45,174 nucleotides of DNA from positions 1 to 45,174 of the forward strand of contig JAQBNO010000058.1 in the NCBI GenBank assembly GCA_028288485.1, read 5' to 3'. The notes beneath the pieces were generated by a model. That model was not told the DNA's origin and ran no database searches. It worked only from the letters and a program-made list of their open reading frames with translations. The stretch is from Segetibacter sp. (GTDB lineage Bacteria; Bacteroidota; Bacteroidia; Chitinophagales; Chitinophagaceae). Of this stretch, positions 3,671 to 42,725 are shown one piece after another (the stretch's first letter is position 1; every line of letters begins with the position of its first letter). Position numbers and translations under genes: made by a program.

Positions 3671-3736
3671 CTTCTTTTTTATTTTACCAGCTTTAGCATT
3701 TCATAGCGTCATCGTTGTGTCACTCTCTTGTACCGG
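3671..3736 (-). repeat. Dispersed ~60-base intergenic repeat, copy A (variant 2)
   Basis: Read on the minus strand, the head is GTACAAGAGAGTGACACAAC followed by GATGA. The tail contains GCTGGTAAAATAAAAAAG. It has the variant-2 core GTGACAC. It lies 45 bases after the GH127 stop and forms an inverted pair with copy B, 114 bases away. Confidence 0.75.
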
Positions 3737-3850
3737 CATATTTTCATTTCATCTTATTCCATGTTCTACTTTTCTTTCCAACTCCCGGCTCCTCTCTTAG
3801 CCTCGCGGCCTGGCACCGACCCCAGCCTGGTTGCCGAAGCAACCACAACA

Positions 3851-3910
3851 GCACAAGTGTGCGACGCAACAATGACTAACCAGGGAACGACTACTGGTAA
3901 CCAAAAATAT
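3851..3910 (+). repeat. Dispersed ~60-base intergenic repeat, copy B (variant 1)
   Basis: The head is GCACAAGTGTGCGACGCAAC and the tail is ACTACTGGTAACCAAAAA. This copy and copy C (9329-9381) match almost throughout, including the middle TAACCAGGGAAC, so they define the full length of the element. The open frame 3728-3985 across it is not considered a gene. Confidence 0.8.
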
Positions 3911-4050
3911 CTTCCTTGTTCCTTGCGCTTTAATAATTTGCACTTCAAACTCGCCGGTAAGAAGTGTGCTAAATTTATTTTTTAGACTCGGTTCAGCAAA
4001 TTGGTTTTGCATCTCGCTAAAAAACAGGGCCATTTAATGATGAAGAAAAA

Positions 4051-4818
4051 ATGAAAAAGAGCCGTAGAGACTTTATAGCCGGGAGTATTAAATTTGGCGC
4101 AATAGCTTCATTAGCTCCTGGAACGTTGTATGCAGCCACTGTGCAAACAGCTACTGCAGGTAAAGGTGGTGATGGATTTAATTTCCTTTTCCAGGGCGAT
4201 TCTATTACGGATGGAAATAGAACCAGAGACAACGATTGGAATCATGTTATGGGACACGGATACCCATACATCATTGCAAGCAGACTGTGGTTTGATTTTC
4301 CTGCAAAAGGCTTTCATTTTTTTAACCGCGGTATTAGCGGCAACAAACTCACTGACCTGGCAGCGCGTTGGCAAAAGGACACCCTTGATATTAAACCTGA
4401 CCTGTTGAGTATTTTAATAGGTGTAAATGATACTGCTGCCTTCATTAAAGGCGACAAGAATTTCACGGCCGGGGAATATGAAAAGGGGTATCGCGAGCTA
4501 TTGCAGCAAACAAAAGAAAAATTGCCTAATGTTCAGTTGGTACTTTGCGAACCGTTTATTCTTCGTGGTGCAAGGGTAAATGATAAATGGAACGAGTACG
4601 CTGCTGAAATAGCGCAAAGGCAGGAAATAGTAAAACGGTTAAGTACCGAACATAATGCGATCTTCATAGAATTCCAGGCGGCCTTCGATAAAGCCTTACT
4701 AAAAGCACCGGCAGAATACTGGATCTGGGACGGCATACATCCTATGCCGGCAGGCCATGAGTTAATGGCAAGAGAATGGATACAACAGGTGAGGAAGAAA
4801 CTAAAGTTTATCAGGTAA
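4051..4818 (+). CDS. SGNH/GDSL hydrolase with Tat-like signal, probable carbohydrate esterase
   Basis: A 255-residue protein with the four SGNH blocks: G-D-S-I-T-D-G with nucleophile S51, the glycine block N-R-G-I-S-G-N (G94), the asparagine block I-G-V-N-D (N126), and the C-terminal D227-x-x-H230 in D-G-I-H-P. The N-terminus K-K-S-R-R-D-F-I followed by a hydrophobic segment looks like a twin-arginine export signal, so it is probably periplasmic or membrane-anchored. Relatives remove acetyl groups from xylan, rhamnogalacturonan or other glycans. Its nearness to the GH127 enzyme supports a role in pectin or hemicellulose breakdown, but the substrate is inferred. Length and all catalytic residues are normal. 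Confidence 0.88.
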   Translation: MKKSRRDFIAGSIKFGAIASLAPGTLYAATVQTATAGKGGDGFNFLFQGDSITDGNRTRDNDWNHVMGHGYPYIIASRLWFDFPAKGFHFFNRGISGNKLTDLAARWQKDTLDIKPDLLSILIGVNDTAAFIKGDKNFTAGEYEKGYRELLQQTKEKLPNVQLVLCEPFILRGARVNDKWNEYAAEIAQRQEIVKRLSTEHNAIFIEFQAAFDKALLKAPAEYWIWDGIHPMPAGHELMAREWIQQVRKKLKFIR

Positions 4819-5088
4819 AGCGCGGCTCTTACCTAAAATAGTTAGCTCTCTGTTTGTATCAATCAGCATCGACAGCCAATAAATCAAGGATGAATACCAA
4901 TGCGGAAGCCGCAGTAGTACCACAACAAATCAAGCCTCCGGGAAAGAAAAGGGGTATCATCATTTCTTCCTTAATTTTTCACCGGGCACCGAGATTTTAA
5001 TTGCCTTTCGATCAAAGAAAAGAAAGTGACAAAAAGCTGAATAGTCTAAGGAGGCTGCCGTTTAACTATGCTCATGAAATTATAAAAG

Positions 5089-6300
5089 TTATTCTTTCAG
5101 GTCAATAAACACTTTTGCATTTTTCTTTTCTGTGGAAGAGATAAATACTTCGTGTCGACGGCCCCCTGCCGTTACAACCATTACGGAAGTATTAGGTGGA
5201 ATAGAACCGAGGTTGTGTGCAACCATAATTAATTCGTGATGAGGGTTGTTGGCATCTACGGCAATACGGAATGATATAGGTTGTGCGGCAAGCTTCTTAC
5301 GAGAAACCAACAGCAGGTTGTTATGATAGATGCTAACAGTGTCACCATCTATTTCTCCGTTGTCATACACGTCGACCTTGATTTCGCCGGCCTCAGTTTT
5401 AATTTGCTCAACCAATGGATTGGCTCGTAATGCCAATACCGGGGGAAGGTTCGGCAAGACTAACGTTCTTTGTTTTGCAACTGGAGACGGATGTAGTGGT
5501 AAATCTTTCTGCGGCTTTGTAACCTCGCTTATAGTTGTTGGTCTTTTTACCGCAGTTGGCGTTTCTTTTTTCAGTTCCGGCATTTGAGCGGCAGGTTTGC
5601 GTTTTACTGTAACAGGTGCTTTCGCGGCGACTTTTACGGCAATGGGTGTTGGCCGCACACATTCCCGAAAGGTAATATCATCCAATGCAAAGTCGTTTCC
5701 GCAACCACCAGGCGCGTTATCAACCATTATTAGCGTTAAAGCTGTTTGAGAAGGTGGCGTAGTAAAGACAGCGCGATACTTTTTCCATTTGGGTGCCGTA
5801 ACCCGTGCTATTTCACCTGTATGAAACTGTGCTGCCATTTTCCCCTCTGGCGTTTCAAGCCGGATAGTAACCTGGGGTAGCAAGGGAAACGGGCATTTCT
5901 CCGTTATTTTACACACATTCATCATCCATACCGCGAACTCGTAGGTAGTTCCGCTCTTTAATCCATTAATTGTTTTTGTTAGAAACGTGCCGCTGGTTCT
6001 CGCCGCGTTCACCAGCATCATATTGCCGGAACGATCGCCTGGAGTATGATCCTCCTCGAGGGTATGCCAGTCGCCGCGAAAGCAGTCACTTGTATAAGAA
6101 GTATAGGCGTAATGACCATCCGTAGGGCAAGAGCCCGGCACACGATTGTAGTAATAGGGCAACAACGTATTCACCTCGGTTATATCCCCGGCACCAAAGT
6201 GGATTGTGATAGCGGGTGGCTTAAAAGTGCAGTTAGATGGTTGCGCTACAGCTTGGAAAGTGAAGGGGAAAGTGGACAGAAAAATAAGTAGCTTTTTCAT
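5089..6300 (-). CDS. Secreted two-domain protein of unknown function with proline-rich linker
   Basis: A 403-residue protein. I chose the ATG at 6300, because it begins a clean signal peptide (MKKLLIFLSTFPFTFQAVAQ), over a TTG 30 bases upstream. The mature N-terminal part (about 22-220) has several Cys residues, many aromatic residues and the ending F-A-L-D-D-I-T-F, the usual end of a galactose-binding-like jelly-roll domain. A Lys/Pro/Thr-rich linker (about 225-295) follows. The final ~110 residues, starting near L-P-P-V-L-A-L-R-A-N-P, resemble a small beta-domain I associate with secreted Chitinophagaceae proteins (D-V-Y-D-N-G-E-I-D-G-D-T-V). Adhesion or glycan binding at the surface is plausible but not shown. 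Confidence 0.75.
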   Translation of the reverse strand: MKKLLIFLSTFPFTFQAVAQPSNCTFKPPAITIHFGAGDITEVNTLLPYYYNRVPGSCPTDGHYAYTSYTSDCFRGDWHTLEEDHTPGDRSGNMMLVNAARTSGTFLTKTINGLKSGTTYEFAVWMMNVCKITEKCPFPLLPQVTIRLETPEGKMAAQFHTGEIARVTAPKWKKYRAVFTTPPSQTALTLIMVDNAPGGCGNDFALDDITFRECVRPTPIAVKVAAKAPVTVKRKPAAQMPELKKETPTAVKRPTTISEVTKPQKDLPLHPSPVAKQRTLVLPNLPPVLALRANPLVEQIKTEAGEIKVDVYDNGEIDGDTVSIYHNNLLLVSRKKLAAQPISFRIAVDANNPHHELIMVAHNLGSIPPNTSVMVVTAGGRRHEVFISSTEKKNAKVFIDLKE

Positions 6301-6453
6301 CCGGAGTTCTTTGATAGTAAAGCTACTCAAATCCCACTTCGTATGGTAAAAAAGCAGGAATTGTTATTTGAAATTTTAAAGAGTAATGGGGCTGCTACCG
6401 AAACATTCAAGAGCAGCATAAATTATAAACGCTATTGAGCAGTGGCAGGTCAA

Positions 6454-6554
6454 CTTAAAATTGTAGCTTCGAGAAACGTCAGAAGTGAACCCGATAATCG
6501 GGAAAAGGGAGTTTCTCTTTTTTACCTTTGACATTTCATTTTTGACATTTCACG
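6454..6554 (+). repeat. Second dispersed repeat family (~95 bases), copy 1
   Basis: This stretch matches, in the opposite orientation, positions 25769-25863. Shared blocks are CTTAAAATTG, AAGTGAACCC, a CGGGAAAA-GGAGTTT block and CCTTTGACATTTCA. Both copies are intergenic. The rest of the 6301-6737 gap shows only the promoter noted separately. Confidence 0.65.
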
Positions 6555-6722
6555 AACACCAGTATACTACCCATGAAGGGAAACCGAAAATTACAGCTTA
6601 TCTCATACAAATGCCGACCCGGTACTGCTGTTAAGTCGGTCACCGGCGTACCCGCGAAGATCTCCCTGCTTTAATCTTTGCTCTTAGTTCTTCAACTGAT
6701 ATAAAAATTGGAAACTAATTAT

Positions 6723-6730
6723 TAATTTTG
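6723..6730 (+). promoter_or_regulatory. Bacteroidota -7 promoter box, possibly leaderless
   Basis: TAATTTTG fits the TAnnTTTG consensus exactly. It ends only 7 bases before the ATG at 6738, so transcription would begin at or next to the start codon. No good -33 TTG at normal spacing is seen: one TTG ends 12 bases upstream, which is too close. Confidence 0.45.
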
Positions 6731-6737
6731 CGGGGGA

Positions 6738-8072
6738 ATGCACCATCACCAGCCCCGTAAAAAACTTTCTTTATTATTAAGGCCTTTACTGTTGACCTTA
6801 GTTGTATGCACCCAAAGTTATGTTTACGGCCAACTGGCTCCTGTCGATTCCCTTAAGACAGATTCTTCACGCTTCCGGCAGGGAAAGGTCCACAAGTCTG
6901 AAATCCTGGATTTGCAATATGATATTGGCGACCTGGTTCAGCACATTTTTCAACCCGGCAAGAAGCACGATTCACTGCGAAACAGATCGGGGATCACTAT
7001 AATACCTAATGTAGCTGCCAACCCCAGCATTGGTTTCCAGCTAGGCATTAAAGCCGTCGCCGGCATAAAATTAGGGAAAGATCCCAGTACTATCATGTCG
7101 ATTGCCGGAACATCGGCTTCCATTACCACTAAGGGCATTCTCTATTTTTACCTGACCCATAATGTTTTTACTAATGGTAACAAGTGGAACCTGCAGGGTA
7201 GCCTGGTGGCAGCAAAGAGCGTTACGCCTGATTATGGCTTCGGAATTGGCCGGGATGCAGGGGAAAGTGAAGAAGATAAGGTGCTTGCCAATGCGGGCCG
7301 TAAAGGATATGTTCTCCATTCGTTATATTATAACTTCCGGGAAAAGGTATACAAGGAGATATTCTCCAACTTTTTTGTTGGCGGCGGAGTTTCGTTTGAT
7401 ATAAGAAGAAGAATTGAAGAAAGGGCGATTGCAGTAAATGAGTTAACACCATATAATATTTACAGCGACCGTTATGGTTTCAACAGGAATAATTACATGT
7501 CGAACGGCCTTTTGTTTAGTATACAGTATACTACCCGCGACAATTTAAACCGTGCGTATAAAGGCTTTTATGCTGACGCGGGTTTTCGAGTGAATCAAAG
7601 ATGGATGGGAAGCACAAAAAGTGCTGTGCAGTTTACCACAGACTTCAGGAAGTATTGGAGTATTTCTAACAGGAATCCCGAACATGTCGTTGCCTTTTGG
7701 AATTGGGGTTCCTATTTGCTCAGTGGAGCTCTACCCTACCTGGAGTTACCGGGCACAGGTAAAGATCCCGGTGCCCGTAGTGGAAGAGGGTATACCATCG
7801 GATACTTTAAAGGCACGAAATATTCTTACTCAGAAGTAGAATACCGATTTCCGATAACAAAAAACAAGTTTCTAAGCGCCGTTACATTCTTTAATATTCA
7901 AACGGCAAACGACGAATTGGGAACCAGGCTGTTTCAGCAATGGCAACCGGGAGTTGGAGGTGGCCTCCGTGTTCTCTTTAATAAGGTTACACGAACTAAT
8001 TTGTGTCTCGATTATGCCTTCGGTAAAAACGGCTCACGTGGATTCTTTTTGGGTATAAATGAAGCTTTCTAA
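6738..8072 (+). CDS. Omp85/BamA-TamA-family outer-membrane barrel protein
   Basis: A 444-residue protein with a signal peptide (about 1-32) and a short charged region. A C-terminal part of about 350 residues has alternating hydrophobic/polar strands and ends in Phe, as outer-membrane barrels do. The segment G-R-G-Y-T-I-G-Y-F-K-G-T followed by Y-S-E-V-E-Y-R-F-P resembles the conserved strands of the bacterial surface antigen (D15/Omp85) domain. No POTRA domains fit in the short N-terminal part, so it is likely a barrel-only member rather than BamA itself. No later Met could serve as start, so the ATG at 6738 is secure. The Dabb lipoprotein gene follows after 37 bases and is probably co-transcribed. 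The transported or inserted partner is unknown. Confidence 0.8.
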   Translation: MHHHQPRKKLSLLLRPLLLTLVVCTQSYVYGQLAPVDSLKTDSSRFRQGKVHKSEILDLQYDIGDLVQHIFQPGKKHDSLRNRSGITIIPNVAANPSIGFQLGIKAVAGIKLGKDPSTIMSIAGTSASITTKGILYFYLTHNVFTNGNKWNLQGSLVAAKSVTPDYGFGIGRDAGESEEDKVLANAGRKGYVLHSLYYNFREKVYKEIFSNFFVGGGVSFDIRRRIEERAIAVNELTPYNIYSDRYGFNRNNYMSNGLLFSIQYTTRDNLNRAYKGFYADAGFRVNQRWMGSTKSAVQFTTDFRKYWSISNRNPEHVVAFWNWGSYLLSGALPYLELPGTGKDPGARSGRGYTIGYFKGTKYSYSEVEYRFPITKNKFLSAVTFFNIQTANDELGTRLFQQWQPGVGGGLRVLFNKVTRTNLCLDYAFGKNGSRGFFLGINEAF

Positions 8073-8109
8073 TAACCCGGCAAATAATAGTTGTCATTAC
8101 CTTTAAATT

Positions 8110-8499
8110 ATGAAAGAACTAAAATTAACCCTTCTATTGATAATCGTTGTGAGCCTTGTCTCCTGTTTCTCTTCGAAACCAAATGGCACTAAAGAAAGGA
8201 AACTGCGTCATGTGGTAGCTTTTAAATTCAAACCGGGTATAACAACTCAACAAATGAAAAAAGCGACCACCGATTTTCTTAATTTGAAAACGCTTATTCC
8301 GCAGGTAACTGAATTAGAAGGAGGTCCGGATGTAGATTATCAGAAAAAGAATGGCAAGTTCACGCATTGCTTTGTAGTAACTGTAAAAAGCCAGGAAGAT
8401 TTAGCAACTTATGGTGCACATCCCGATCACAAAGCATTCAGCAGCTCGGTGGATCCCCTACTGGCAGAGGTGATGGTGGTAGATTATTGGACAGAATAA
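8110..8499 (+). CDS. Dabb-family (stress-responsive alpha/beta barrel) lipoprotein
   Basis: A 129-residue protein. The N-terminus ends in a lipobox (L-V-S-C, C19), so it should be a lipoprotein. The rest is one Dabb domain: L-R-H-V-V-A-F-K-F-K-P-G near 35-46, a G-G-P-D turn, and Y-G-A-H-P-D-H-K-A-F near 100-109. Dabb proteins are small ferredoxin-like folds, usually dimers. Most have no proven reaction and some act in stress response or as cyclases. It follows the barrel gene at short distance. A frame remnant after its stop (about 8480-8617) is open but has no start and no recognised family. Confidence 0.85.
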   Translation: MKELKLTLLLIIVVSLVSCFSSKPNGTKERKLRHVVAFKFKPGITTQQMKKATTDFLNLKTLIPQVTELEGGPDVDYQKKNGKFTHCFVVTVKSQEDLATYGAHPDHKAFSSSVDPLLAEVMVVDYWTE

Positions 8500-8626
8500 G
8501 CTAAACCAGCCGGTACCGTATGAACGGCTAAAAATTCTAAAGAAATATTATCTTCCGTCGATCACACGGCTTGCAGAAGTTGCTGATCAATCAGGAGGAG
8601 CGCTTCCCGATCATTAAATAAAAACT

Positions 8627-9178
8627 ATGTCGTATTGTAACGCAATCGAAAATATGGCTGAAGATAAAAAGGCCTTGCATAAAGCGTATCACGACAAACT
8701 GTACGGTTTCCCGATACATGATGACAATGAATTGTTTTGCAGGCTTGTTTTAGAAATTAACCAGGCAGGACTGAGTTGGGAAACGATACTGAAAAAAGAA
8801 ACGACGTTTAGGAGCGCTTACCACAATTTCGATATTGAAAAAGTAGCTGCATATACAGAAGGTGACAGGGAAAGACTACTGGCAGATCCGGGCATTATTC
8901 GCAACAGGTTAAAAGTAAATGCAGCCATAGAAAATGCCAAAACGATTCTACAACTTCAAAATGAATATGGCTCGTTCGAAAAATGGCTGGAACATCACCA
9001 TCCGAAATCGAAGGAAGAATGGGTGAAATTATTTAAGAAGGTTTTTAAATTTACCGGAGGAGAAATTGTAAATGAATTTTTAATGAGCATCGGGTACCTG
9101 CAGGGGGCTCATTCACCAGGTTGTAAAATATACCAGGATGTAATAAAGACAAAACCGATGTGGTTACAAACTTCATAA
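8627..9178 (+). CDS. tag: DNA-3-methyladenine glycosylase I
   Basis: A 183-residue cytosolic base-excision repair enzyme that removes 3-methyladenine from alkylated DNA. The features of E. coli Tag are present. The zinc site is C4, H22 and the C-terminal H162-x3-C166 in A-H-S-P-G-C. The base-recognition region is E-I-N-Q-A-G-L-S-W, with E43 and W51, and Y21 precedes H22. Length is normal for the family. It is on the same strand as the Dabb gene but 127 bases away, so it may have its own promoter. Confidence 0.93.
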   Translation: MSYCNAIENMAEDKKALHKAYHDKLYGFPIHDDNELFCRLVLEINQAGLSWETILKKETTFRSAYHNFDIEKVAAYTEGDRERLLADPGIIRNRLKVNAAIENAKTILQLQNEYGSFEKWLEHHHPKSKEEWVKLFKKVFKFTGGEIVNEFLMSIGYLQGAHSPGCKIYQDVIKTKPMWLQTS

Positions 9179-9328
9179 GAAAGAAAACTGCTAATAATTT
9201 TGAAGCTTTAACCTCCGCTCCTGCCACGGCGTTTATCATAGCGGCTGCCGTCATGCAGAAGCAAAAATACTGTCCACAGTTCACGATTAAGCAGAACTGC
9301 AGCAGGCCCATGTAATTACAGGTGTTGC

Positions 9329-9381
9329 AGTGTGCGACGCAACGACGATTAACCAGGGAACAAGTGCCGGCAACCAAAAAA
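9329..9381 (+). repeat. Dispersed ~60-base intergenic repeat, copy C (variant 1)
   Basis: The head GTGTGCGACGCAAC, the middle TTAACCAGGGAACA and the tail GCCGGCAACCAAAAAAA match copy B nearly base for base. The remainder of the 9179-9548 gap has no other gene, only the hairpin at 9492-9542. Confidence 0.8.
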
Positions 9382-9491
9382 ACCACATCGCGGCTTCCTG
9401 CGTGTTTGAGTTGGCAGTACTGTTAATTGAAAGATAAAAGCTGTGGCGGAAATTAAGAGTCGTGGTAAAGAACAATGCTTGTTACTAAAAA

Positions 9492-9542
9492 TACAATACG
9501 ACAAAAGGTGGCACCATTGGTTCCACCTTTTGTCGTATTGTA
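9492..9542 (-). terminator. Strong hairpin, terminator of the 114-residue gene
   Basis: The arms 9492-9511 and 9523-9542 are perfect 20-base complements around an 11-base loop. The hairpin lies 6 bases past the minus-strand stop at 9549, and read on the minus strand it is followed by ATTTTTA. It could also stop plus-strand transcription. Confidence 0.8.
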
Positions 9543-9548
9543 AATACT

Positions 9549-9893: not shown

Positions 9894-9976
9894 TTAACCA
9901 TTTCTTATCTCCTAATACACACTAGCCATACCTTTAGCCTTGTTACGGCTATTTTTCGGGATAGGTTTCCAAAAGA

Positions 9977-10284: not shown

Positions 10285-10426
10285 ATAATAGATTTTGATG
10301 ACTTAAGAAGCCTCTGGCATGGAAATTTAATGATTTCCTGAATTAAAATGCAGGTAGAGGTCTGAAAATCATCCCTTTATAATGGATCAGTCGTTAAATA
10401 CCTGCATAAACATAAAATCAGAGATT

Positions 10427-11811: not shown

Positions 11812-11870
11812 TTTTTTTGGGACCGGCGTTAGAATTTCTGATCCTCACCGGTTGCGTCGCACTCTTGTAC
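11812..11870 (-). repeat. Dispersed ~60-base intergenic repeat, copy D (variant 1)
   Basis: On the minus strand it reads GTACAAGAGTGCGACGCAAC, a divergent middle, then GCCGGTCCCAAAAAAA. It sits in the 11726-12051 gap, which has no gene. Confidence 0.7.
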
Positions 11871-12051: not shown

Positions 12052-13929
12052 TCACTTCATCAATTCAAGTACAAGAACGGTTTTCGCGGGAATTGCTATT
12101 GCAGAAAGATCGCTTAGCCTTTTATTGTTAATCACATCCCTGGCGCCAATAAATCCTTTTAAACGTTCTGTATATCGTGCGGTATTAAGTGATAATTCTT
12201 TGTCTGTTGTATTGGTTGCAATCATTATAGTTTTCGCTGCATTGTATCTGAAGTAAACATAGGTACCGTTTTGCGGAACGTATTGCATCAACTTACCTGA
12301 ATGTAAGGCGGGTGTATTTTTACGATAATTAGCGAGGACCTTCACGTAATTGAAAGCTTCATTTTCTTTTTTGTTGCGTCCGCTGGCTGTAAACTTATTA
12401 TCCTTGTCTCCCGCAAAACCACCTGGAAAATCTTGCCTTACTTCAGCGTCACTCGGATCTCTAAAGTTCTTCATCAGGATCTCGGTACCGTAATACCAGG
12501 AGGGTATTCCTCTTGTTGTTAACAACCAGGTTACTCCAATTTTGTATTTATCAAAATCATTCCCGATAACTGATAAATACCTGTCCATATCATGGTTGTC
12601 AAGAGAGGTTACCATTTTCATAGGGTCTGCGTAAACTGCATCTTCCGCTAATGTCTGGTAAACCCGGTTAACTCCATCATCCCAGCCGAAGTTTTGTTTT
12701 AGCCCGTCAAGAATTGCATAATTCAAAGGAAAATCAAGTGTACCGGGCAGGTTGCTTTTAAAAGGAAAGCCTACATTATTTTTTACAAAATAAGAAAGAC
12801 CAAGCGGACGCGAAGCCGTTGATTCTCCGAAAAGGTGAATGCTTGGATATTCGGTCAACAATGCCTTGTTACAGTCGTTCATAAACGCCTGGTCATTATA
12901 CTTGTAAGTGTCGATGCGCCACGCATCAAGGCTGAACATTTCAGTAGACCAGATGGCATGCTGAATTAAATATTTAGCAAGGAAAGAATTTCGCTGATTT
13001 AAATCGGGCAAAAAAGAAGTAAACCACCCTCCCAGCAATAATTTCCTGTCGGCGTCAGCACTATACTCATCATAAAGCGCTTGTTCTTTATGAGAGCTTC
13101 CTGTATAAGCGGGCCAGTTGTTTAACCAGTCTTTTGCGGGCAGATCCTTGTAGAACCAGTGATCATCGCTGATGTGGTTATAAACTGCATCCTGCACCAG
13201 CTTCATTCCTCTCTGGTGCACTGCTTTAGCAAACTGAATGTAGCCTTCCGTACCACCAAAACGGGGATCAACTTTATAATGATCGGTAAAGTGATAGCCA
13301 TGATAGCCTGCCTGCATACGCTGCGGTCCCTCCTGTTTAAGCAGCTCATCATTTTCAATTACAGGGGTGAGCCAAAGCGCAGTAACACCGAGTTCCTGCA
13401 GGTAGTCCAGGTTATTGATGATCCCTTTAAAATCGCCCCCATGACGTAAATAAGGACTTTTACGATCTGCAAGCGGATCGGCCATTGTAGCAAACTTATC
13501 GTTTGTGGTATCGCCGTTTGCGAAGCGGTCAGGCATAAGCAGGTAGATTAAATCGGCCGATGTAACGCCGGTTCCTTTGGCTTCTTTTGTGCGTGCCTTT
13601 AGTTGGTACAACCGGGTTATGATCTGATTGCCCAATTTACCAACAACTTTTAGTGTTCCTGGTTTTGTTGACGGAGCAATGATAAGATCGAGAAAAGCAT
13701 AATTTGGATTTTCAACTTTACTTGTTTTCGCTAACTTAACGCCGGGATAGTTTATCGTATAGTTTAACATGCCGGCATTGTTACCATATACCATTAATTG
13801 CACGTTCGGATTTTTCATTCCCACCCACCAGTTAGTGGGATCAATTCGTTGGATGGCCGGTTCTGTTTTCTGCGCATAAACTGTGGTAACAGAGGTAAAA
13901 ACGACGAAGAAGGCAAGTAAAAATTTCAT
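12052..13929 (-). CDS. Secreted GH13 alpha-amylase family enzyme (cyclomaltodextrinase/neopullulanase type)
   Basis: A 625-residue protein with signal peptide (MKFLLAFFVVFTSVTTVYAQ). An N-terminal Ig-like domain of the cyclomaltodextrinase type (about 25-112) precedes a GH13 barrel (about 125-530) and a C-terminal beta-sandwich (about 545-625). The GH13 motifs are intact: D-A-V-Y-N-H (247-252), A-W-R-I-D with nucleophile D340, L-F-G-E-S with acid/base E369, and S-L-D-N-H-D with H446 and D447. It should hydrolyse alpha-1,4 links in maltodextrin or cyclodextrin in the periplasm, like SusA-type enzymes. No other starch genes are adjacent. It has its own -7 box upstream. Confidence 0.92.
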   Translation of the reverse strand: MKFLLAFFVVFTSVTTVYAQKTEPAIQRIDPTNWWVGMKNPNVQLMVYGNNAGMLNYTINYPGVKLAKTSKVENPNYAFLDLIIAPSTKPGTLKVVGKLGNQIITRLYQLKARTKEAKGTGVTSADLIYLLMPDRFANGDTTNDKFATMADPLADRKSPYLRHGGDFKGIINNLDYLQELGVTALWLTPVIENDELLKQEGPQRMQAGYHGYHFTDHYKVDPRFGGTEGYIQFAKAVHQRGMKLVQDAVYNHISDDHWFYKDLPAKDWLNNWPAYTGSSHKEQALYDEYSADADRKLLLGGWFTSFLPDLNQRNSFLAKYLIQHAIWSTEMFSLDAWRIDTYKYNDQAFMNDCNKALLTEYPSIHLFGESTASRPLGLSYFVKNNVGFPFKSNLPGTLDFPLNYAILDGLKQNFGWDDGVNRVYQTLAEDAVYADPMKMVTSLDNHDMDRYLSVIGNDFDKYKIGVTWLLTTRGIPSWYYGTEILMKNFRDPSDAEVRQDFPGGFAGDKDNKFTASGRNKKENEAFNYVKVLANYRKNTPALHSGKLMQYVPQNGTYVYFRYNAAKTIMIATNTTDKELSLNTARYTERLKGFIGARDVINNKRLSDLSAIAIPAKTVLVLELMK

Positions 13930-19242: not shown

Positions 19243-19294
19243 TTTTATAGGTTACCTGCATTTGTTTTTACCGCGTCATCGTTGCGTCGCATTA
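19243..19294 (-). repeat. Dispersed ~60-base intergenic repeat, copy E (variant 1, left end changed)
   Basis: On the minus strand it reads CGTAATGCGACGCAACGATG, then a divergent middle and TGCAGGTAACCTATAAAAC. The usual GTACAAG start is lost. It lies in the 19094-19498 gap, which holds no gene. Confidence 0.65.
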
Positions 19295-26009: not shown

Positions 26010-26069
26010 GTACAAGAGTGCGACGCAACGGCTGCTCCACAGAAGTACAACGGTCGGCTACCCCAAAAA
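26010..26069 (+). repeat. Dispersed ~60-base intergenic repeat, copy F (variant 1)
   Basis: The head is GTACAAGAGTGCGACGCAAC, the middle is divergent, and the tail is GGTCGGCTACCCCAAAAAC. It lies in the gap before the ABC transporter genes. Confidence 0.7.
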
Positions 26070-27994: not shown

Positions 27995-28054
27995 GGTTTT
28001 TGGTACATAACTGAAAAACTACTTTTTGGCTTTGGTTGTGTCACTCACTTGTAC
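27995..28054 (-). repeat. Dispersed ~60-base intergenic repeat, copy G (variant 2)
   Basis: On the minus strand it reads GTACAAGTGAGTGACACAAC, then a divergent middle and GTACCAAAAACC. It has the variant-2 core GTGACAC. Confidence 0.7.
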
Positions 28055-30777: not shown

Positions 30778-32373
30778 TTACTTTGCCATTTTCGCTTTAA
30801 TCATGGTGAAAGAATGTGGTGGGAAACTATAAGTGATTTTATTTCCGCTGGCATTAACAGGAGCCTTTTCAACCGTTTTCACTTCTTCCTTATTAAAATC
30901 ATTTCCTGATTTAATATCCGGACCATTTACTTCAAAAACTTTTGCAGTTCCGCTAAACGTACCGTTCTGAGAAAGAATATCTGTAGTGATGGCCTGGTCC
31001 TTATTGCGGTTTACCACGCATAACGTTACTTCTCCATCTTTGTAAGTAGCTGAAACATCGAGGTACGGCACTTTTCCTAATTGCGCAGTCGTTTCACTCA
31101 AACCTAAATTAAACCGCGGGGTACTGTATCCTTTGCTGTCAACAAATACATCAAGGGCAGTTCCGGAAACATTGTTGGCAAATAATTGCAGGGGATAAAA
31201 AATCGTCTGTTTAAACATGCCTGTTTCATTGGTAAATATCGGTGCTATTACATTAACCAGTTGCGCCATGTTAGCCATTTTAACTACATCAGCGTTCCTG
31301 ATAAACGCATTCAAGAACCCCGCGATCACAAGCGCATCTTCCAGGTTATATCTTTCCTCGAGTGCATTTTTACCAGTAGCAAATGTACCTCGTCTTGCCC
31401 GGTACCAAACATTGTACTCATCCCAGGCGATGTAAATAGGATCACGATCTCCCCTGGCGGCAGTTTGCATTGCCTGCGTAATCAGCCCTTTGATCATTTT
31501 GGTCCGTTGTTCAAGCACAAGGGGAGTCGAAACAAAATTATAATAATTGGTATCAGGATTACCAACATACATATGGATGGCTATGTAGTCGATCACATCC
31601 TTCAATTCGGTAAGAATAGTCTGGTTCCAATGATCGGGATCAGCGCCGGGGCGATAATTAGATGAACCTGCCGCAATCAGCTTAATACCGGGAGAAGTTC
31701 TTACCATCAGTTTGGCTGCTTCGCGTGCTTTTTTAGTATAGTCTTCGGCGCTCATATGGCCCATCTGCCAGGTGCCGTCCATTTCGTTACCGAGGCTCCA
31801 GTATTTAATATTATGCGGTTCAGCAACTCCATGTTTTTTTCTAAGTTCCGCATAATAAGGTCCTTCCTTTACGTTGCAATATTCTACCCATCGCCGTGCT
31901 TCTTCAATGGTACCGGTGCCCATGTTTACCGAAAAATAAGGTTCTGTACCTATTGCCTTTGCATACTCCATGAATTCGTTGGTGCCAAACAAGTTTGATT
32001 CTAAGGTACTCCAGGCCAACTCCAGGCGTGGAATGCGTTCTGATTTGGGTCCTACCCCATCAAGCCAGTTATAATTAGAAACAAAATTTCCACCGGGATA
32101 CCTGATGATGCTGGGCTTCAGTTCTTTAACAGCACCCATTACATCTCTTCTGAAGCCACTTTTATCTGACAGCTTGTTTCCCGGTTCATAAATACCGCCA
32201 TAAACACACCGTCCCAAATGCTCAACAAAATTTCCATAAATAAGCGGGCTCACTTCAGCTATTGTTCGGTCGAGATCTATTTTAATCCTCGCGTTTTGCG
32301 AATAAAGATTAAATGGGACGTAAAAAAACAGGACAATGATTAGGGTAACCTGTAGTAAAGTTTTCTTGAACAT
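30778..32373 (-). CDS. Secreted GH51 alpha-L-arabinofuranosidase
   Basis: A 531-residue protein with a signal peptide (about 1-25). The GH51 barrel shows G-N-F-V-E-H-L-G-R-C-V-Y-G-G (47-60), R-Y-P-G-G-N-F (91-97), acid/base E197 in L-G-N-E-M-D-G, and nucleophile E319 in A-W-D-E-Y-N-V-W. A C-terminal beta-sandwich (about 400-531) completes the family architecture. It releases alpha-L-arabinofuranose from arabinan or arabinoxylan. Many GH51 enzymes are cytosolic, so the signal peptide suggests periplasmic action. It is likely co-transcribed with GH105. Confidence 0.93.
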   Translation of the reverse strand: MFKKTLLQVTLIIVLFFYVPFNLYSQNARIKIDLDRTIAEVSPLIYGNFVEHLGRCVYGGIYEPGNKLSDKSGFRRDVMGAVKELKPSIIRYPGGNFVSNYNWLDGVGPKSERIPRLELAWSTLESNLFGTNEFMEYAKAIGTEPYFSVNMGTGTIEEARRWVEYCNVKEGPYYAELRKKHGVAEPHNIKYWSLGNEMDGTWQMGHMSAEDYTKKAREAAKLMVRTSPGIKLIAAGSSNYRPGADPDHWNQTILTELKDVIDYIAIHMYVGNPDTNYYNFVSTPLVLEQRTKMIKGLITQAMQTAARGDRDPIYIAWDEYNVWYRARRGTFATGKNALEERYNLEDALVIAGFLNAFIRNADVVKMANMAQLVNVIAPIFTNETGMFKQTIFYPLQLFANNVSGTALDVFVDSKGYSTPRFNLGLSETTAQLGKVPYLDVSATYKDGEVTLCVVNRNKDQAITTDILSQNGTFSGTAKVFEVNGPDIKSGNDFNKEEVKTVEKAPVNASGNKITYSFPPHSFTMIKAKMAK

Positions 32374-33269: not shown

Positions 33270-33325
33270 GTACAAGTGTGCGACGCAACGATGATCAATA
33301 TAGATTCAACTGCTGGTACCAAAAT
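33270..33325 (+). repeat. Dispersed ~60-base intergenic repeat, copy H (variant 1), inside the lut cluster
   Basis: The head is GTACAAGTGTGCGACGCAAC followed by GATGA, and the tail is CTGCTGGTACCAAAATAAACC. It lies 63 bases downstream of the lutB stop, in the lutB-lutC gap. Confidence 0.78.
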
Positions 33326-35507: not shown

Positions 35508-35580
35508 ATAGGGGGTCTTTATCGGTTTTTTCAATTGTGATTGTATGTGTGCAACGTTTAGATTCTATTCAAGCCCATTT

Positions 35581-37905: not shown

Positions 37906-38152
37906 CAAATTTTAGTTTTATACAGTCCCATTAAATCTGCGGGAGGATTGGACTGTATTGGCAAAGCAACTGTTGAATATGGTTACAATTGGACTGCAAG
38001 TAAACAAATGCAATTGTGCGTTTAAAATTAAGGGATGCGCCTGAAATAAATCATCTTAATTTCTTTTAACCGTAAGGAATGGTTTTTTTGTCAGGCTGAT
38101 TTGCTTACAAAACACTTACAATCACCGGCTCTACTAACATTATCGTTCAATC

Positions 38153-39202
38153 ATGAAGCTTTCACCGATAGCACAAAACCCACTTGAATGGATCGCACTT
38201 AAATCTGGTCTTGTGCCAACCCCTTTAGCCTACTCGCATTTTGGGTTCATGATCAGCAAATTCCTACTGGAAGCAGTAGACAAAGGAGTTTTTGAAGCAA
38301 TTGGTCATAATAGAGTTAGCCTTGCAGATATCTGTACTGTTTGTTCTCTTGATGAAAAAGCTGTCAAAAGCTTACTAGGTGTTGTGGCAACAATGGGTTT
38401 GGTTAAGCATGAAAAAAACTGTTTTTCATTAACCGCTAAATCGAAAAAGTGGATTTTAAAAGACAGTCCAAATTCGTTGTATTGGCTAATGATGTTCGAC
38501 AACAGGGTTTGTCTTAAATGGATGGATCATGTTGGGCCGTTTCTACAAACGGGGAAGGGACTTCAATACCACGAAACATTTAATGAGGAAGAGTGGTTCT
38601 TATACCAAAAAGCTATGGAAGCTGCTGCGTCGGCAACCTCGAAAGAAGCTGTAAGAAAAATTCCGGTTCCTTCATCTGCGTTTAAAATGTTAGATATTGG
38701 AGGTTCACACGGCTTATACTCAGTTGCACTGTGCAAAAAAAATCCCCGCCTCTCTTCTACCGTTTTAGATCTTCCTCCAGCAGTAGAAAAAGCCAAACCT
38801 ATCCTGGAAAAATTTGGTATGGGAACCCGGGTTGTACATCGTTCAGGAAATATACTTACAGATGAAATCGGTCAGGCAGAATATGATCTCATTTTAATGG
38901 CCAGTGTGGCTCATCATTTTACACCTGAAGAAAACCTTGCGGTAGCACGAAAAGCGTTTACGGCATTAAAACCAGGTGGCGTGTTTACGATAATGGAAGT
39001 ATTAAGGAACGATACAATAAAAAATAATGGCGACATGCTTAGTGCAATCGGTGATTTCTTTTTTGCCCTAAGCAGCACTTCGGGAACGTGGAGCCTGCAG
39101 GAAATTAAAGAGTGGCAAAAGGAAGCTGGGTTTCAAGCGTATCGAAAAAACACTTTCCTAACTATTCCGGGGTATGTAGCGGTTACAGGAAGGAAGCCGT
39201 GA
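38153..39202 (+). CDS. SAM-dependent O-methyltransferase-like protein (Methyltransf_2 fold)
   Basis: A 349-residue protein. The N-terminal ~110 residues form a winged-helix dimerisation domain (L-E-A-V-D-K-G-V-F-E-A-I, then L-L-G-V-V-A-T-M-G-L-V). The C-terminal Rossmann fold has the SAM motif M-L-D-I-G-G-S-H-G-L-Y-S near 180-191, then L-D-L-P-P-A-V-E-K-A and L-K-P-G-G-V-F. This is the layout of plant-type and polyketide O-methyltransferases and of their bacterial relatives. No biosynthetic cluster surrounds it, so the substrate is unknown. It has its own unit; the gap before it (37906-38152) has an inverted repeat TACAGTCC/GGACTGTA (37921-37957). Confidence 0.85.
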   Translation: MKLSPIAQNPLEWIALKSGLVPTPLAYSHFGFMISKFLLEAVDKGVFEAIGHNRVSLADICTVCSLDEKAVKSLLGVVATMGLVKHEKNCFSLTAKSKKWILKDSPNSLYWLMMFDNRVCLKWMDHVGPFLQTGKGLQYHETFNEEEWFLYQKAMEAAASATSKEAVRKIPVPSSAFKMLDIGGSHGLYSVALCKKNPRLSSTVLDLPPAVEKAKPILEKFGMGTRVVHRSGNILTDEIGQAEYDLILMASVAHHFTPEENLAVARKAFTALKPGGVFTIMEVLRNDTIKNNGDMLSAIGDFFFALSSTSGTWSLQEIKEWQKEAGFQAYRKNTFLTIPGYVAVTGRKP

Positions 39203-39287
39203 CGGATGACGGATGACAGATATGACAGTTGACAGATGACAGATGACGGATGACGGAGAATGGATGTGGTTGACAGATATGACAGTT
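39201..39287 (+). repeat. Short tandem heptamers (GACGGAT/GACAGAT) and a 17-base direct repeat
   Basis: From the methyltransferase stop onward GACGGAT and GACAGAT words repeat about seven times. TGACAGATATGACAGTT occurs at 39214-39230 and 39271-39287. A further direct repeat, CTGTGTTCCGTCAACT, occurs at 39577-39592 and 39598-39613. These have no spacers and are not a CRISPR array. The gap 39203-39769 has no gene. Confidence 0.7.
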
Positions 39288-39642
39288 ACGAGTTGTAGGT
39301 TCCAGGTTATCGGCCCGTGGTAACAGATGGAAGTTTTTGCGGATAACAGTTGGCGGTAATATAGGATGAATTATTGCTAAGATGAAGAGATCATAGAGAA
39401 CAGAAGTCGAATGATGCACCCGTGCAATACACGCGAGTGCCGAGTGCCGACCTACTTTTTCATGTTCGATGAAAGACAAGTGTATGTAAGGCTATCGATG
39501 ACTAATAACGAATTGAAGGCATAGCTGTTTAGTGAAGACATTTTGTACTGTTAAAATGAACCTTGCTTGCAGTACCCTGTGTTCCGTCAACTGTCATCTG
39601 TGTTCCGTCAACTTTTAAAGCAGTTGAATAAAGCATCGACAA

Positions 39643-39700
39643 GTACAAGTGAGTGACACAACGATGATGATTAGCATTCCTCCCGCTGGTTACAGAAAAA
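39643..39700 (+). repeat. Dispersed ~60-base intergenic repeat, copy I (variant 2)
   Basis: The head is GTACAAGTGAGTGACACAAC followed by GATGATGA, and the tail is CCGCTGGTTACAGAAAAATT. It sits 69 bases before the M16 protease start. Confidence 0.75.
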
Positions 39701-39769
39701 TTAAAATTTAAATTGTTTTATTGAAACCTAACTACAATAAGTTTACTTGCGGACTAAACTTATTCTCTT

Positions 39770-42580
39770 ATGAAGCTTATTTCTAAAAAGCTTATTGTTT
39801 GTTTTATTTTGATCACCATGGGCATTTCTGTAAATGCTCAAACGCCAGCGGGAAAAAAACTGGCCGTTATGCCGGAGGTTAAAATTGGAAAGCTAGCAAA
39901 TGGCCTAACCTATTACATTCGCAAAAACCAGGAGCCAAAAAACCGCGCTGAGCTTCGACTCGCAGTAAAAGCAGGTTCTATACTTGAAAATGAGCAACAA
40001 TTGGGTCTTGCCCATTTTACTGAGCACATGGCCTTCAATGGCACGAAAAACTTCAAAAAGCAGGAACTGGTTGATTTTCTGGAAAAAAGCGGCGTAAGCT
40101 TTGGCGCCGACTTAAACGCTTATACTTCGTTCGATGAAACTGTTTATATGCTTCAGCTTCCTACTGATAGCCCAACAGTTTTTAAAAAAGGGTTCCAGAT
40201 CCTTGAGGACTGGGCACACAACGTGTCGTTTGAGCACGCTGAAATAGATAAAGAAAGAGGTGTTGTTATAGAAGAATGGAGATTGGGACAAGGGGCAAAT
40301 GAGCGGATGAGGGCAAAGTATTTTCCTGTTATACTGAAGGGTTCACGATATGCCACCCGTCTTCCGATAGGGACTAAGAAGAACCTGGAAACTTTTAAAT
40401 ACGAGACGGTAAAACAATTTTATAAAGACTGGTACCGCCCCGACCTGCAGGCTGTACTGGTAGTAGGCGATATAGACGTAGCAGAGGTGGAGAAGCTGAT
40501 CATCAAACACTTTTCAAGCATTCCTAAAGCCGTAAACGCTAAGCCACGAACGAAATTCGGCATACCTGCTCAAAAAGAAACCCAGGCTGTTATTCTAACC
40601 GATCCTGAGCAGACGTATAATGTCGTTCAGATTTTTTACAAGCAGCCTTCTATTCCTCAGGCAAAAACGGATGTTGAATACAGGGCGTCCATTGTTCGTA
40701 GCTTGTTTAACCAAATGATGAGCGCAAGGCTGCAGGAAATAGCGCAAAAACCAAGTGCGCCGTTCCTGTTTGGCAACAGCAGCTATGGCAAGTTTATCGG
40801 CGATAAAGATGCCCTTACACTGGTAGCGGTTGCAAAAGACGGAAAAGGGATCCCTAATGCAACAGAGGCATTATTGCAGGAAAATGAAAGGGTGCGTCAA
40901 AACGGGTTTACCCAAGGAGAACTCGATCGTGCTAAAGCAGCATCATTATCAGGTATGGAAAATGCCTATAGCGAACGGAGCAAAACAAACTCAGGTCAAC
41001 TAGTTGAAGAGCTTATTCGTAATTTTCTTACCGGGGAACCCATCCCCGGAATTGCCAAGGAATATGAATTGTACCAGCAATATATTCCCGGCATACAACT
41101 TTCTGAGGTTAACAGCCTCATAACCCAATGGTTAAAGCCCCAAGACAGGGCCATCGTTGTAACGGCGCCAGAATCAGAAAAGGCAAACCTGGTAACCGAA
41201 GCCCAAATGCTTGCGCTGGTTAATAAACAACAAGGTAGTTTGACAGCTTATGAAGACAAAGTGATGAAAGGTGACTTGCTGGCAAAACAGCCGGTAGCTG
41301 GTAAAATAACAGCTGAAAAGAAAATTGCTGAATTAGGCGTTACAGAATTAACCCTGTCTAACGGGGCAAAAGTTGTATTGAAACCTACTGATTTTAAAAA
41401 TAACCAAATCCTTATTTCTGCTATCAGCAAAGGTGGCTCCTCTTTATATAGTGATTCAGATTACCTGTCTGCCGCCAATGCTGTCAGCGTTGCTTTGTAT
41501 GGCGGTGTAGGTAATTACGATATAATGAGTCTTCAAAAAGAATTGCAGGCAAAGCAGGTATCGGTATCTCCAAGTATTGGGCAATATACCGAAGGCATCG
41601 GCGGAAGTTCTACTCCTAAAGACCTTGAAACTGCTTTTCAGCTGTTACACGGTTACTTTACTGAGCCTCGTCGCGACAGCTCTATGTTCGAAGTATTGAA
41701 ACAGCAGTTGACTGCTTCGTTAATCAACAAAGGCAAAGATCCTTCTTCTGTTTTTAGCGATTCGGTGAGTTATATTATGGCGAATTACAACCCACGCCGC
41801 AGGCCATTGACGGTAGACAGGCTAAACGAAATAAAGCTTGATAAAGCTTTTTCTATTTACCAGGATCGCTTTAGCGACGCAGGTGATTTCATTTTTACTT
41901 TTGTCGGAAACTTTAATATAGACAGCATTAAGCCAAACATTGAAAAGTATATCGCTTCATTGCCTTCGGCAGGAAGAAAAGAAAGCTGGAAAGATGTGGG
42001 CATTCGTTATCCAACGGGCGTAGTCAATAAGGAGATCAGGAAAGGCCGGGAAAGCAAAAGCTCTGTTCGCATCTCTTTCACCGGAACTACTGAATATAGC
42101 GATCTTGAAGCAACACAGCTCGACCAGGCAGCAAAAGTGTTGGAAATCAGGCTAAGGGAAATTTTGCGTGAAGACCAGGGAGGTGTTTATGGTGTTGGTG
42201 TAAATGCTAACATTAACCGCGAGCCGATCAACAGCTATAGCGTAACCATTTCTTTTGGCTGTGCTCCTGAAAACGTCGACAAGTTAACCGGCCTCATAAT
42301 GGAAGAAATCAAAAACATGAAAGCCAACGGCGGCAATCAAACCAATGTTGAAAAGGTAATTGCAGAAGACACGCGTGGTTTAGAAACAAGTGTAAAAGAA
42401 AACGATTACTGGTTGTACAACCTGCAGGATAAATACTACTTCAACGAAGATCCTAAGATTATCCTGGAAGACGCTTCTATGGTTAAAAAACTAACCGTAG
42501 CAAGAACGAAGGAATTGGCGAATAAATATTTCAACCCCGACAACATGGTAAAATTGGTGCTGATGCCCGAAACCAAATAG
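39770..42580 (+). CDS. Secreted M16-family zinc metalloprotease (pitrilysin/PqqL type)
   Basis: A 936-residue protein with a signal peptide (about 1-24, ending V-N-A-Q). The inverted zinc motif H82-F-T-E85-H86 is intact, with the downstream E-R-G-V-V-I-E-E (162-169) supplying the third ligand, probably E169. The C-terminal half (about 520-936) is a second M16 unit without the zinc motif, as expected for a clam-shell pitrilysin with active and inactive halves on one chain. It degrades peptides in the periplasm. A good terminator follows, so it is a single-gene unit. Confidence 0.92.
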   Translation: MKLISKKLIVCFILITMGISVNAQTPAGKKLAVMPEVKIGKLANGLTYYIRKNQEPKNRAELRLAVKAGSILENEQQLGLAHFTEHMAFNGTKNFKKQELVDFLEKSGVSFGADLNAYTSFDETVYMLQLPTDSPTVFKKGFQILEDWAHNVSFEHAEIDKERGVVIEEWRLGQGANERMRAKYFPVILKGSRYATRLPIGTKKNLETFKYETVKQFYKDWYRPDLQAVLVVGDIDVAEVEKLIIKHFSSIPKAVNAKPRTKFGIPAQKETQAVILTDPEQTYNVVQIFYKQPSIPQAKTDVEYRASIVRSLFNQMMSARLQEIAQKPSAPFLFGNSSYGKFIGDKDALTLVAVAKDGKGIPNATEALLQENERVRQNGFTQGELDRAKAASLSGMENAYSERSKTNSGQLVEELIRNFLTGEPIPGIAKEYELYQQYIPGIQLSEVNSLITQWLKPQDRAIVVTAPESEKANLVTEAQMLALVNKQQGSLTAYEDKVMKGDLLAKQPVAGKITAEKKIAELGVTELTLSNGAKVVLKPTDFKNNQILISAISKGGSSLYSDSDYLSAANAVSVALYGGVGNYDIMSLQKELQAKQVSVSPSIGQYTEGIGGSSTPKDLETAFQLLHGYFTEPRRDSSMFEVLKQQLTASLINKGKDPSSVFSDSVSYIMANYNPRRRPLTVDRLNEIKLDKAFSIYQDRFSDAGDFIFTFVGNFNIDSIKPNIEKYIASLPSAGRKESWKDVGIRYPTGVVNKEIRKGRESKSSVRISFTGTTEYSDLEATQLDQAAKVLEIRLREILREDQGGVYGVGVNANINREPINSYSVTISFGCAPENVDKLTGLIMEEIKNMKANGGNQTNVEKVIAEDTRGLETSVKENDYWLYNLQDKYYFNEDPKIILEDASMVKKLTVARTKELANKYFNPDNMVKLVLMPETK

Positions 42581-42598
42581 TACCGGTTCGTATAATAG

Positions 42599-42630
42599 AA
42601 AATCCTTTTCCCTGACTGGAAAAGGATTTT
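42599..42630 (+). terminator. Rho-independent terminator
   Basis: AAAATCCTTTTCC (42599-42611) and GGAAAAGGATTTT (42618-42630) are perfect complements around CTGACT, followed by TTTT. It lies 18 bases after the protease stop. Confidence 0.92.
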
Positions 42631-42663
42631 TTTTATACCGAACAAGTGATAAGAGTTACAGTG

Positions 42664-42725
42664 TTCTTTTTGAGCCAAACATCATTGCTACTAATGATAC
42701 ATCGTTGCGTCGCACCCTTGTACCG
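42664..42725 (-). repeat. Dispersed ~60-base intergenic repeat, copy J (variant 1)
   Basis: On the minus strand it reads GGTACAAGGGTGCGACGCAA followed by CGATG, then a divergent middle and TTTGGCTCAAAAAGAAC. Beyond it, 42771-42935 is open in one plus-strand frame without a start codon. Confidence 0.7.

What the first reader, a model, noticed from the sequence alone, without database searches (positions are those of the whole stretch)
3671..42725. A ~60-base element repeated ten times in 45 kb, always between genes
Copies A-J (3671-3736, 3851-3910, 9329-9381, 11812-11870, 19243-19294, 26010-26069, 27995-28054, 33270-33325, 39643-39700, 42664-42725) share a 20-base head close to GTACAAGTGTGCGACGCAAC, often followed by GATGA, a variable middle, and a tail close to CTGGTAACCAAAAA. 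Five are on each strand and none lies in an intact gene. The full unit is fixed by copies B and C, which match almost end to end. A density near one per 4.5 kb would mean well over a thousand copies if typical of the genome (inference). It encodes no transposase and could be a non-autonomous element, a REP-like sequence or a binding site.
Basis: seen in the sequence. Interest (0 to 1): 0.78.

Follow-up and report, generated by a model that had tools for sequence, protein, structure and literature searches.

The report
Evenly spaced, conserved bacterial intergenic repeat
A two-part DNA motif sits between genes hundreds to thousands of times in some soil bacteria of one family, spaced unusually evenly and kept at the same places in different species, which suggests that it does a job for the whole chromosome that is still unknown.

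Summary
Nine of the ten copies match the head with up to 3 mismatches (0.02 expected); copy E is decayed. The host genome, apparently Segetibacter, has 579 exact heads (reversed-pattern control 0), about 1,100 estimated in all. Across sampled Chitinophagaceae copy number runs from 0 to 2,371; outside the family it is nearly absent.

The unit is a 20-bp head, a spacer of about 30-31 bp whose length is kept, and an A-tract. Heads come in two discrete types. Two units facing apart, usually one of each type, form an imperfect palindrome; the rest are single halves.

Unlike described REPs and REPINs, single halves do not fold alone and are no more decayed than paired ones. They keep place and orientation between species whose flanking DNA has randomised. 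Spacing is more even than chance, and close neighbours avoid the same orientation. No inspected RAYT gene is flanked closely on both sides.

Best reading: a palindromic element that spread long ago and now serves as a selected, protein-bound DNA site. The protein and its task are unknown.

The parts
3671..3736 (-). Copy A, type V2 head (3714-3733) with tail; left half of the palindromic pair A-B
3851..3910 (+). Copy B, type V1 head (3851-3870) with tail; right half of the pair A-B
9324..9381 (+). Copy C, type V1 head (9324-9343, 3 mismatches) with tail
11812..11870 (-). Copy D, type V1 head (11851-11870) with tail
19243..19294 (-). Copy E, decayed copy that keeps the head core and a tail remnant; not found by the 3-mismatch pattern
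26010..26069 (+). Copy F, type V1 head (26010-26029) with tail
27995..28054 (-). Copy G, type V2 head (28035-28054) with tail
33270..33325 (+). Copy H, type V1; a head sits at the same place and orientation in G098 (head 19 of 20 alike, flanks unlike)
39643..39700 (+). Copy I, type V2; head at 127-128 bp before the same M16 peptidase gene in 4 of 9 Segetibacter genomes examined
42664..42725 (-). Copy J, type V1, after the same M16 gene; G172 and G201 also carry a head on that side in that orientation

Best explanation
The repeat is one half of an imperfect palindrome that spread through intergenic DNA of Chitinophagaceae, probably long ago, and whose copies are now kept as DNA sites. Shown: each site is a 20-bp head, then about 30-31 bp of freely varying sequence, then an A-tract. 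Shown: sites stay at the same place and orientation in sister species whose flanking DNA has randomised, and they are spaced more evenly than chance. Inferred: a protein, or a pair of related proteins for the two head types, binds the head and contacts the A-tract three helical turns away on the same face of the DNA. Inferred: because the site faces gene 5' ends as well as 3' ends, the job is at the level of DNA (chromosome folding, supercoil control or a boundary between genes) rather than of RNA. The protein is unidentified. The way it first spread is inferred from the palindromic pairs and from two whole-unit length differences only.
For: Bipartite form: the A-tract starts at a median of 30 or 31 bp after the head in four data sets; within 28-34 bp in 0.92, 0.67, 0.91 and 0.89 of copies with a detectable tract (278 of 340, 43 of 86, 119 of 134, 148 of 201), against 0.07-0.38 in a control window. 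Two discrete heads: 755 of 761 heads have the diagnostic bases TCG or ATA, six anything else. Persistence: of 33 syntenic intergenic regions over 80 bp in either genome, G141 and G058 both hold a head in 15, G141 alone in 4, G058 alone in 0, neither in 14 (Fisher p 6e-6); all 15 share a same-orientation copy. In 17 matched pairs the head is 82-94% identical while flanks are 19-37%, the same as unmatched pairs (19-23% and 32-37% respectively at the two flank windows); head type agrees in 15 of 17 (p 0.0035), and the distance to the gene on the tail side differs by a median of 7 bp against 49 bp on the other side. Even spacing: gap CV 0.617 against 0.716 in G141 and 0.660 against 0.798 in G000, 1 of 500 shuffles as low in each. 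Intergenic: 0 of 152, 3 of 334 and 1 of 74 heads in called genes. Single halves are no more decayed than paired ones. Facing both gene ends: 54% of 3' and 42% of 5' ends in G141, 24% and 11% in G000.
Against: Copy number jumps within a genus (400 in G103, 0 in G003; 165 and 1 in G004 and G104), which an essential site should not do. In two of the four G141-only regions the G058 region is about 105-119 bp shorter, as if a whole unit had been gained or lost, so block gain or loss still happens. The persistence counts rest on one species pair (280 kb against 800 kb) and on a few Segetibacter loci; only three matched pairs came from G000-G098. Heads were found by similarity, so head identity in matched pairs is biased upwards; the presence counts are less so. 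At the M16 gene only 4 of 9 genomes keep the head at 127-128 bp. The two head types may simply be the left and right ends of an old element. No binding protein was found, and the even-spacing null depends on my gene calls.
Confidence: 0.45

Rival explanations
1. A REPIN- or MITE-like selfish family and nothing more. The paired palindrome is the replicating unit, moved by an enzyme not identified here, and single halves are remnants with no role.
For: Pairs are divergent and of fixed inner lengths (17 of 24 bp, 7 of 31 bp among 71), mostly of unlike types (57 unlike, 14 V1V1, 0 V2V2), and fold strongly (mean z about -4). Same-orientation close pairs are absent (0 of 76 under 300 bp), as reported for REP dimers (PMC3733652 passages). 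RAYT-like genes occur in 13 of 16 genomes tested. Copy number varies widely.
Against: In REPINs single copies decay faster than pairs and lie at random distances beyond 400 bp (PMC3116915 passages); here singles are as intact as paired ones and spacing is over-even. Three genomes with 140, 61 and 34 exact heads show no RAYT match at E 0.1, and none of 19 inspected RAYT-like genes has the head within 200 bp on both sides (2 have it on one side).
Confidence: 0.25
2. An RNA element: a 3' or 5' untranslated hairpin that ends, stabilises or processes transcripts.
For: Pairs fold well as RNA on either strand. Gene 3' ends and convergent regions are favoured: 43 of 54 convergent and 38 of 72 divergent regions occupied in G141, 29 of 62 and 13 of 72 in G000.
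Against: Single halves do not fold (mean z -0.31 to 0.45) yet are as conserved as paired ones. The tail faces 5' ends too, in the sense direction, so both RNA strands would have to work. Left and right tails of a pair show no more complementarity than swapped tails. No Rfam family at gathering score in the window.
Confidence: 0.12
3. A DNA uptake signal of the kind known from Pasteurellaceae and Neisseriaceae, kept by biased uptake of relatives' DNA.
For: Hundreds to thousands of copies, both orientations, even spacing, dialect-like head types, limited to one family and uneven among species. Uptake motifs with hundreds to thousands of copies and dialects are described (PMC2346458 and PMC3630211, start of abstract in listing).
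Against: PilB/PilT-type ATPases (PF00437, E 1e-20) occur in only 5 of 195 family genomes and in none of G000, G098, G172 or G004; G141, G058 and G149 are not among the five either. Heads are almost excluded from genes, and the motif is longer than known uptake signals (recalled).
Confidence: 0.1
4. A site acted on by a recombinase, so that same-orientation neighbours are lost or selected against.
For: Adjacent same-orientation pairs under 3 kb: 2 of 44 in the sampled G000 DNA against 23.3 expected, lowest of 5000 simulations 13. G141 single halves at 1-2 kb: 10 same, 44 opposite.
Against: The total number of pairs per kb at those distances is not lowered in G141 singles (54 per kb at 1-2 kb against about 56 at 4-10 kb), so deletion alone does not explain it. 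No recombinase was sought or found.
Confidence: 0.05

Closest known systems
REP / BIME repeats (repetitive extragenic palindromes and their mosaics)
   Same: Short, intergenic, hundreds to thousands of copies, singles and inverted pairs, heterodimers, tandem-oriented pairs rare; REPs and BIMEs are protein binding sites (PMC3733652 and PMC6006769 passages; PMC2817692 start of abstract).
   Different: A REP unit is itself a palindrome; here the half does not fold. The head is followed by an A-tract at a fixed distance. Copies are held in place between species with the flanks randomised.
REPINs with RAYT transposases
   Same: Inverted pair of conserved short sequences with a variable, often structured spacer that forms a hairpin (PMC3116915 passages).
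   Different: Single halves not decayed relative to pairs, over-even spacing, no RAYT flanked closely on both sides, three carrier genomes without a RAYT match.
CGTC-tagged REP family
   Same: Known from Bacteroidetes among other phyla, predominantly one kind of inverted dimer, no linked transposase (PMC3733652 passages); V1 read on the other strand contains CGTC.
   Different: V2 and V3 heads lack CGTC; no 8-9 bp stem in the half.
DNA uptake sequences (Haemophilus USS, Neisseria DUS)
   Same: Copy number, even spread, both orientations, dialects.
   Different: Longer bipartite motif, nearly excluded from genes, no type IV pilus ATPase in carriers checked.
MITEs such as Correia elements, and ERIC (recalled, not tested)
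   Same: Roughly 150-bp imperfect palindromes in intergenic DNA.
   Different: The conserved part is internal, not terminal; no target duplication established; no parent transposase found between bracketing copies.

Membership tests
REP | Intergenic, high copy number | tested here: met
REP | Each unit is an imperfect palindrome that folds alone | tested here: not met
   Halves fold no better than shuffles: mean z -0.31/0.45 (V1, n 67), -0.20/-0.15 (V2, n 69), -0.58/0.37 (V3, n 16); arms either side of the head not complementary. V3 is a partial exception: a stretch matching the reverse complement of its core lies upstream in 10 of 16
REPIN | Inverted pair forming a hairpin | tested here: met
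   71 divergent close pairs in 800 kb of G141; mean z -3.99 and -3.74 for 68 pairs
REPIN | Singles more decayed than pair members | tested here: not met
   G141 exact heads: V1 0.42 single, 0.46 paired (p 0.45); V2 0.62 single, 0.54 paired (p 0.25)
REPIN | Cognate RAYT gene flanked by the repeat | tested here: not met
   19 RAYT-like loci from 10 genomes inspected; head within 200 bp on one side in 2, on both sides in 0; a further one in G141 also not. Not every RAYT of every carrier was looked at
CGTC-REP | Terminal CGTC and 8-9 bp stem | tested here: not met
   V2 and V3 heads lack CGTC; halves do not fold
DNA uptake sequence | High copy number with even spacing | tested here: met
DNA uptake sequence | Carriers have the type IV pilus uptake ATPase | tested here: not met
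   PF00437 in 5 of 195 genomes; explicit zero in G000, G098, G172, G004
DNA uptake sequence | Preferential uptake of motif-bearing DNA | not testable with these tools
   needs transformation assays
MITE | Terminal inverted repeats and target duplication | tested here: inconclusive
   Ends of pairs look like TTTTTATGNAC / GTNCATAAAAA by eye; duplications not established
MITE | Parent element with transposase between the same ends | tested here: inconclusive
   No recurring transposase-like protein among 215 proteins bracketed by divergent copies; judged by eye from the recurring cluster only
BIME-type topology site | Binds gyrase, IHF or another DNA-binding protein | not testable with these tools
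   needs binding assays
Known structured RNA | Rfam match | tested here: not met
   0 matches at gathering score in the window

The most novel reading that the evidence does not exclude
A family-specific chromosome-wide positional code: a two-part protein site laid between genes every 2-6 kb, in two interchangeable but discrete forms, with neighbours set in opposite orientations over distances of 2-3 kb, kept by selection. Such a system, with an unknown binding protein that reads orientation across genes, has no described counterpart in Bacteroidota that I found.
Probability: 0.35. Interest if true: 0.88.

Novelty: new variant of a known kind. Interest (0 to 1): 0.7.

Why it matters
If the sites are bound and selected, they offer a natural set of over a thousand marked positions for studying chromosome organisation in a large family of soil bacteria, and a case in which a spread repeat has become infrastructure. 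The orientation rule between neighbours across whole genes is, as far as I searched, not reported for REP-like repeats at such distances, and it can be tested directly. The contrast between 400 copies and none in one genus makes comparison easy.

Tried and rejected
Head-and-tail hairpin: one copy (L073) suggested complementary arms around the head, but over 235 copies arms are no more complementary than swapped ones (4.71 against 4.63).

Coding peptide: frame 0 of the unit is open in some copies, but length differences upstream break the frame (seen); dropped.

RAYT absence: from PF01797 alone (144 of 195 genomes, G141 not in the list of matches) I first concluded that G141 had no Y1 transposase and wrote so in the notebook. 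NF047646 then gave seven matches in G141, so that conclusion was wrong and is withdrawn. What stands is that 19 inspected genes are not flanked closely on both sides and that G024, G072 and G052 have no match at E 0.1.

Deletion of direct repeats as the sole cause of the orientation rule: rejected because total pair density stays level in G141 singles.

Gene-strand bias as cause of the orientation rule: simulation conditioned on flanking gene strands expects 23.3 same-orientation pairs, 2 seen.

Parent transposase between divergent copies: none recurring. Literature: head strings matched 16 papers whose titles concern unrelated organisms or primers; none was opened. Searches for Bacteroidetes or Chitinophagaceae intergenic repeats listed nothing that describes this repeat; the library lacks most subscription papers.

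Weak points: gene calls, orthologue calls and spacing nulls are from my own scripts. G000 statistics use 840,828 of 6,375,045 bp; G141 800,000 of 5,528,026; G058 280,000 of about 5.2 million.

Full report
What is in the window. The ten reported copies are real. Nine match GTACAAGNGWGYGACRCAAC within three mismatches, where shuffles expect 0.02; E is decayed but recognisable. A and B face away from each other with 117 bp between their heads. No Rfam family is found at gathering score.

The host and the spread. The twelve-base core occurs 417 times in the genome and its reversal 0 times. The exact 20-base pattern occurs 579 times here and in 82 of 195 sampled family genomes, in 53 of 101 genera, with reversed control 0 in every listed genome. 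Allowing two mismatches, G141 has 2,371 copies, G149 2,266 and G058 1,522; controls are 0 to 4 per genome. Among 395 genomes of the class, 9 of them from the family and 5 from other families of the order, only one genome outside the family has a match, a single one. Twelve viral-contig stretches hold an exact V1 head; they were not followed up.

Anatomy. Position-wise conservation over 235 copies from mixed genomes runs from about -20 to +58 around the head. Heads are of two main types, V1 GTACAAGNGTGCGACGCAAC and V2 GTACAAGNGAGTGACACAAC. Three bases change together: of 761 heads with the otherwise fixed core, 755 are pure V1 or V2. A third type, GTACAAGCGAGCGTGGCAAC, occurs 16 times in the sampled host DNA, with a longer conserved upstream part. 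After the head come 30-31 bp that vary freely in sequence, then an A-tract; the distance has an interquartile range of 30-31 or 30-32 in three of the four data sets and 30-35.5 in the smallest. In G141, variation inside the head sits at positions 1-3 and 19 (counted from 0), and positions 8-18 are nearly invariant (the finder allowed three substitutions).

Pairs and singles. In 800 kb of G141, 76 neighbours under 300 bp are all in opposite orientation, 71 of them facing apart. Of these 71, 57 join V1 to V2, 14 are V1-V1 and none V2-V2. Inner lengths cluster at 24 (17 pairs) and 31 bp (7 pairs); longer inner parts often fold (42 inner parts over 50 bp, mean z -1.4). Whole pairs fold strongly (68 pairs, mean z -3.99 and -3.74), halves do not. 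The two tails of a pair show no excess of complementarity over swapped tails. In sampled host DNA most copies are single.

Where the copies lie. 0 of 152 heads in the host sample, 3 of 334 in G141 and 1 of 74 in G058 are inside called genes. The tail faces 186 of 347 gene 3' ends and 161 of 383 gene 5' ends in G141, and 88 of 364 and 42 of 384 in the host. Convergent regions are the most and divergent ones the least occupied. Gaps between occupied intergenic regions are more even than when occupancy is shuffled among regions of like length: 1 of 500 shuffles as low in CV in each genome.

Orientation rule. In the host sample, adjacent copies under 3 kb have the same orientation in 2 of 44 cases; a simulation that keeps flanking gene strands expects 23.3, lowest 13. 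Taking all pairs under 3 kb, 3 are same and 42 opposite. In G141, single halves at 1-2 kb are 10 same and 44 opposite, at 4-10 kb 184 same and 154 opposite. I have no tested explanation.

Conservation in place. G141 and G058 are of one genus with 78% median protein identity over 94 reciprocal best hits. Of 33 syntenic intergenic regions over 80 bp in either genome, 15 hold heads in both, 4 in G141 alone, 0 in G058 alone, 14 in neither (p 6e-6; 15, 2, 0 and 9 when both must exceed 80 bp). All 15 share a same-orientation copy. In 17 matched copies flanks are as unlike as in unmatched copies, the head is not, and type agrees in 15. Since heads were found by likeness, head identity is biased; presence and absence, orientation and type are less so. 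At the M16 peptidase gene of nine Segetibacter genomes, four keep a head at 127-128 bp upstream with unalignable flank and middle; G201 has one of the other type at 150 bp; G196 seems to keep only a tail remnant, by eye; G172, G197 and G195 show none. G000-G098 added three matched pairs with heads 95% and flanks 27% identical.

Gain and loss. In two G141-only regions the G058 region is 105 and 119 bp shorter, so whole units are gained or lost. Same-genus genomes can have 400 copies and none. This speaks against an indispensable site.

Which mover. PF01797 finds one intact and one broken gene in the host. NF047646 finds RAYT-like matches in 13 of 16 genomes tested, among them G141 (7) and G003, which has no copies (3), and none in carriers G024, G072 and G052. 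Of 19 such genes inspected, two have a head within 200 bp on one side and none on both; at least twelve have other palindromes beside them, by eye. No other enzyme was identified, and proteins bracketed by copies show no recurring transposase by eye.

Reading. REP, BIME and REPIN papers (passages of PMC3733652, PMC6006769, PMC3116915) describe inverted dimers, rare tandem dimers, structured spacers and singles that are remnants. The pairs here fit. The singles do not: they lack a fold, are not more decayed, are evenly spaced and stay in place. I therefore favour an old palindromic element whose halves became protein-bound sites. The step to a protein is inference from the fixed three-turn distance and the sequence constraint. 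Uptake signals share copy number, spacing and dialects, but the pilus ATPase is missing in the carriers checked. An RNA role is weakened by the lack of fold in halves and by the use of both gene ends.

Literature limits. The searches named covered an open-access library only; absence from it does not prove that the repeat is undescribed.

Noticed in passing
L192 and neighbours (G141:C1, about 249,686-300,000): A tandem array of about 750-820-residue membrane proteins that look like MacB/FtsX-type permeases by eye (cluster of 24 in the bracketed set), units about 2.6 kb apart, with paired copies of the repeat between many of them.
   Followed up: no
L072, L075, and G000:C13 near 73,459: A GC-rich hairpin repeat sits inside the head right after GACGC or GACAC, as if another REP-like element used the head as target.
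   Followed up: no
L257, after the RAYT-like gene: The RAYT-associated palindrome (CGCAGAGTC...GACTCTGCG type) also appears inside the loop next to a V2 head.
   Followed up: no
G000: C13 90,714; C54 21,823 and 92,141; C133 53,795: Four copies of a different longer repeat that begins like a V1 head and goes on AAGAAACCTTAGGGG...AACCATGCAAAATGAACTTTT.
   Followed up: no
L009 (G000:C195 8,051-8,395): A 161-residue Y1 protein with motifs recalled from subclass 1.2 in PMC6006769, with other palindromes beside it.
   Followed up: partly
G058 region of IGR 236: Three same-orientation V2 heads in a tandem array of about 112 bp, a rare exception to the orientation rule.
   Followed up: no
window 1197-3626, 12052-13929, 30778-32373: Carbohydrate-degrading enzymes (GH127-like, cyclomaltodextrinase-like, alpha-L-arabinofuranosidase C-terminal domain) in one window.
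   Followed up: no
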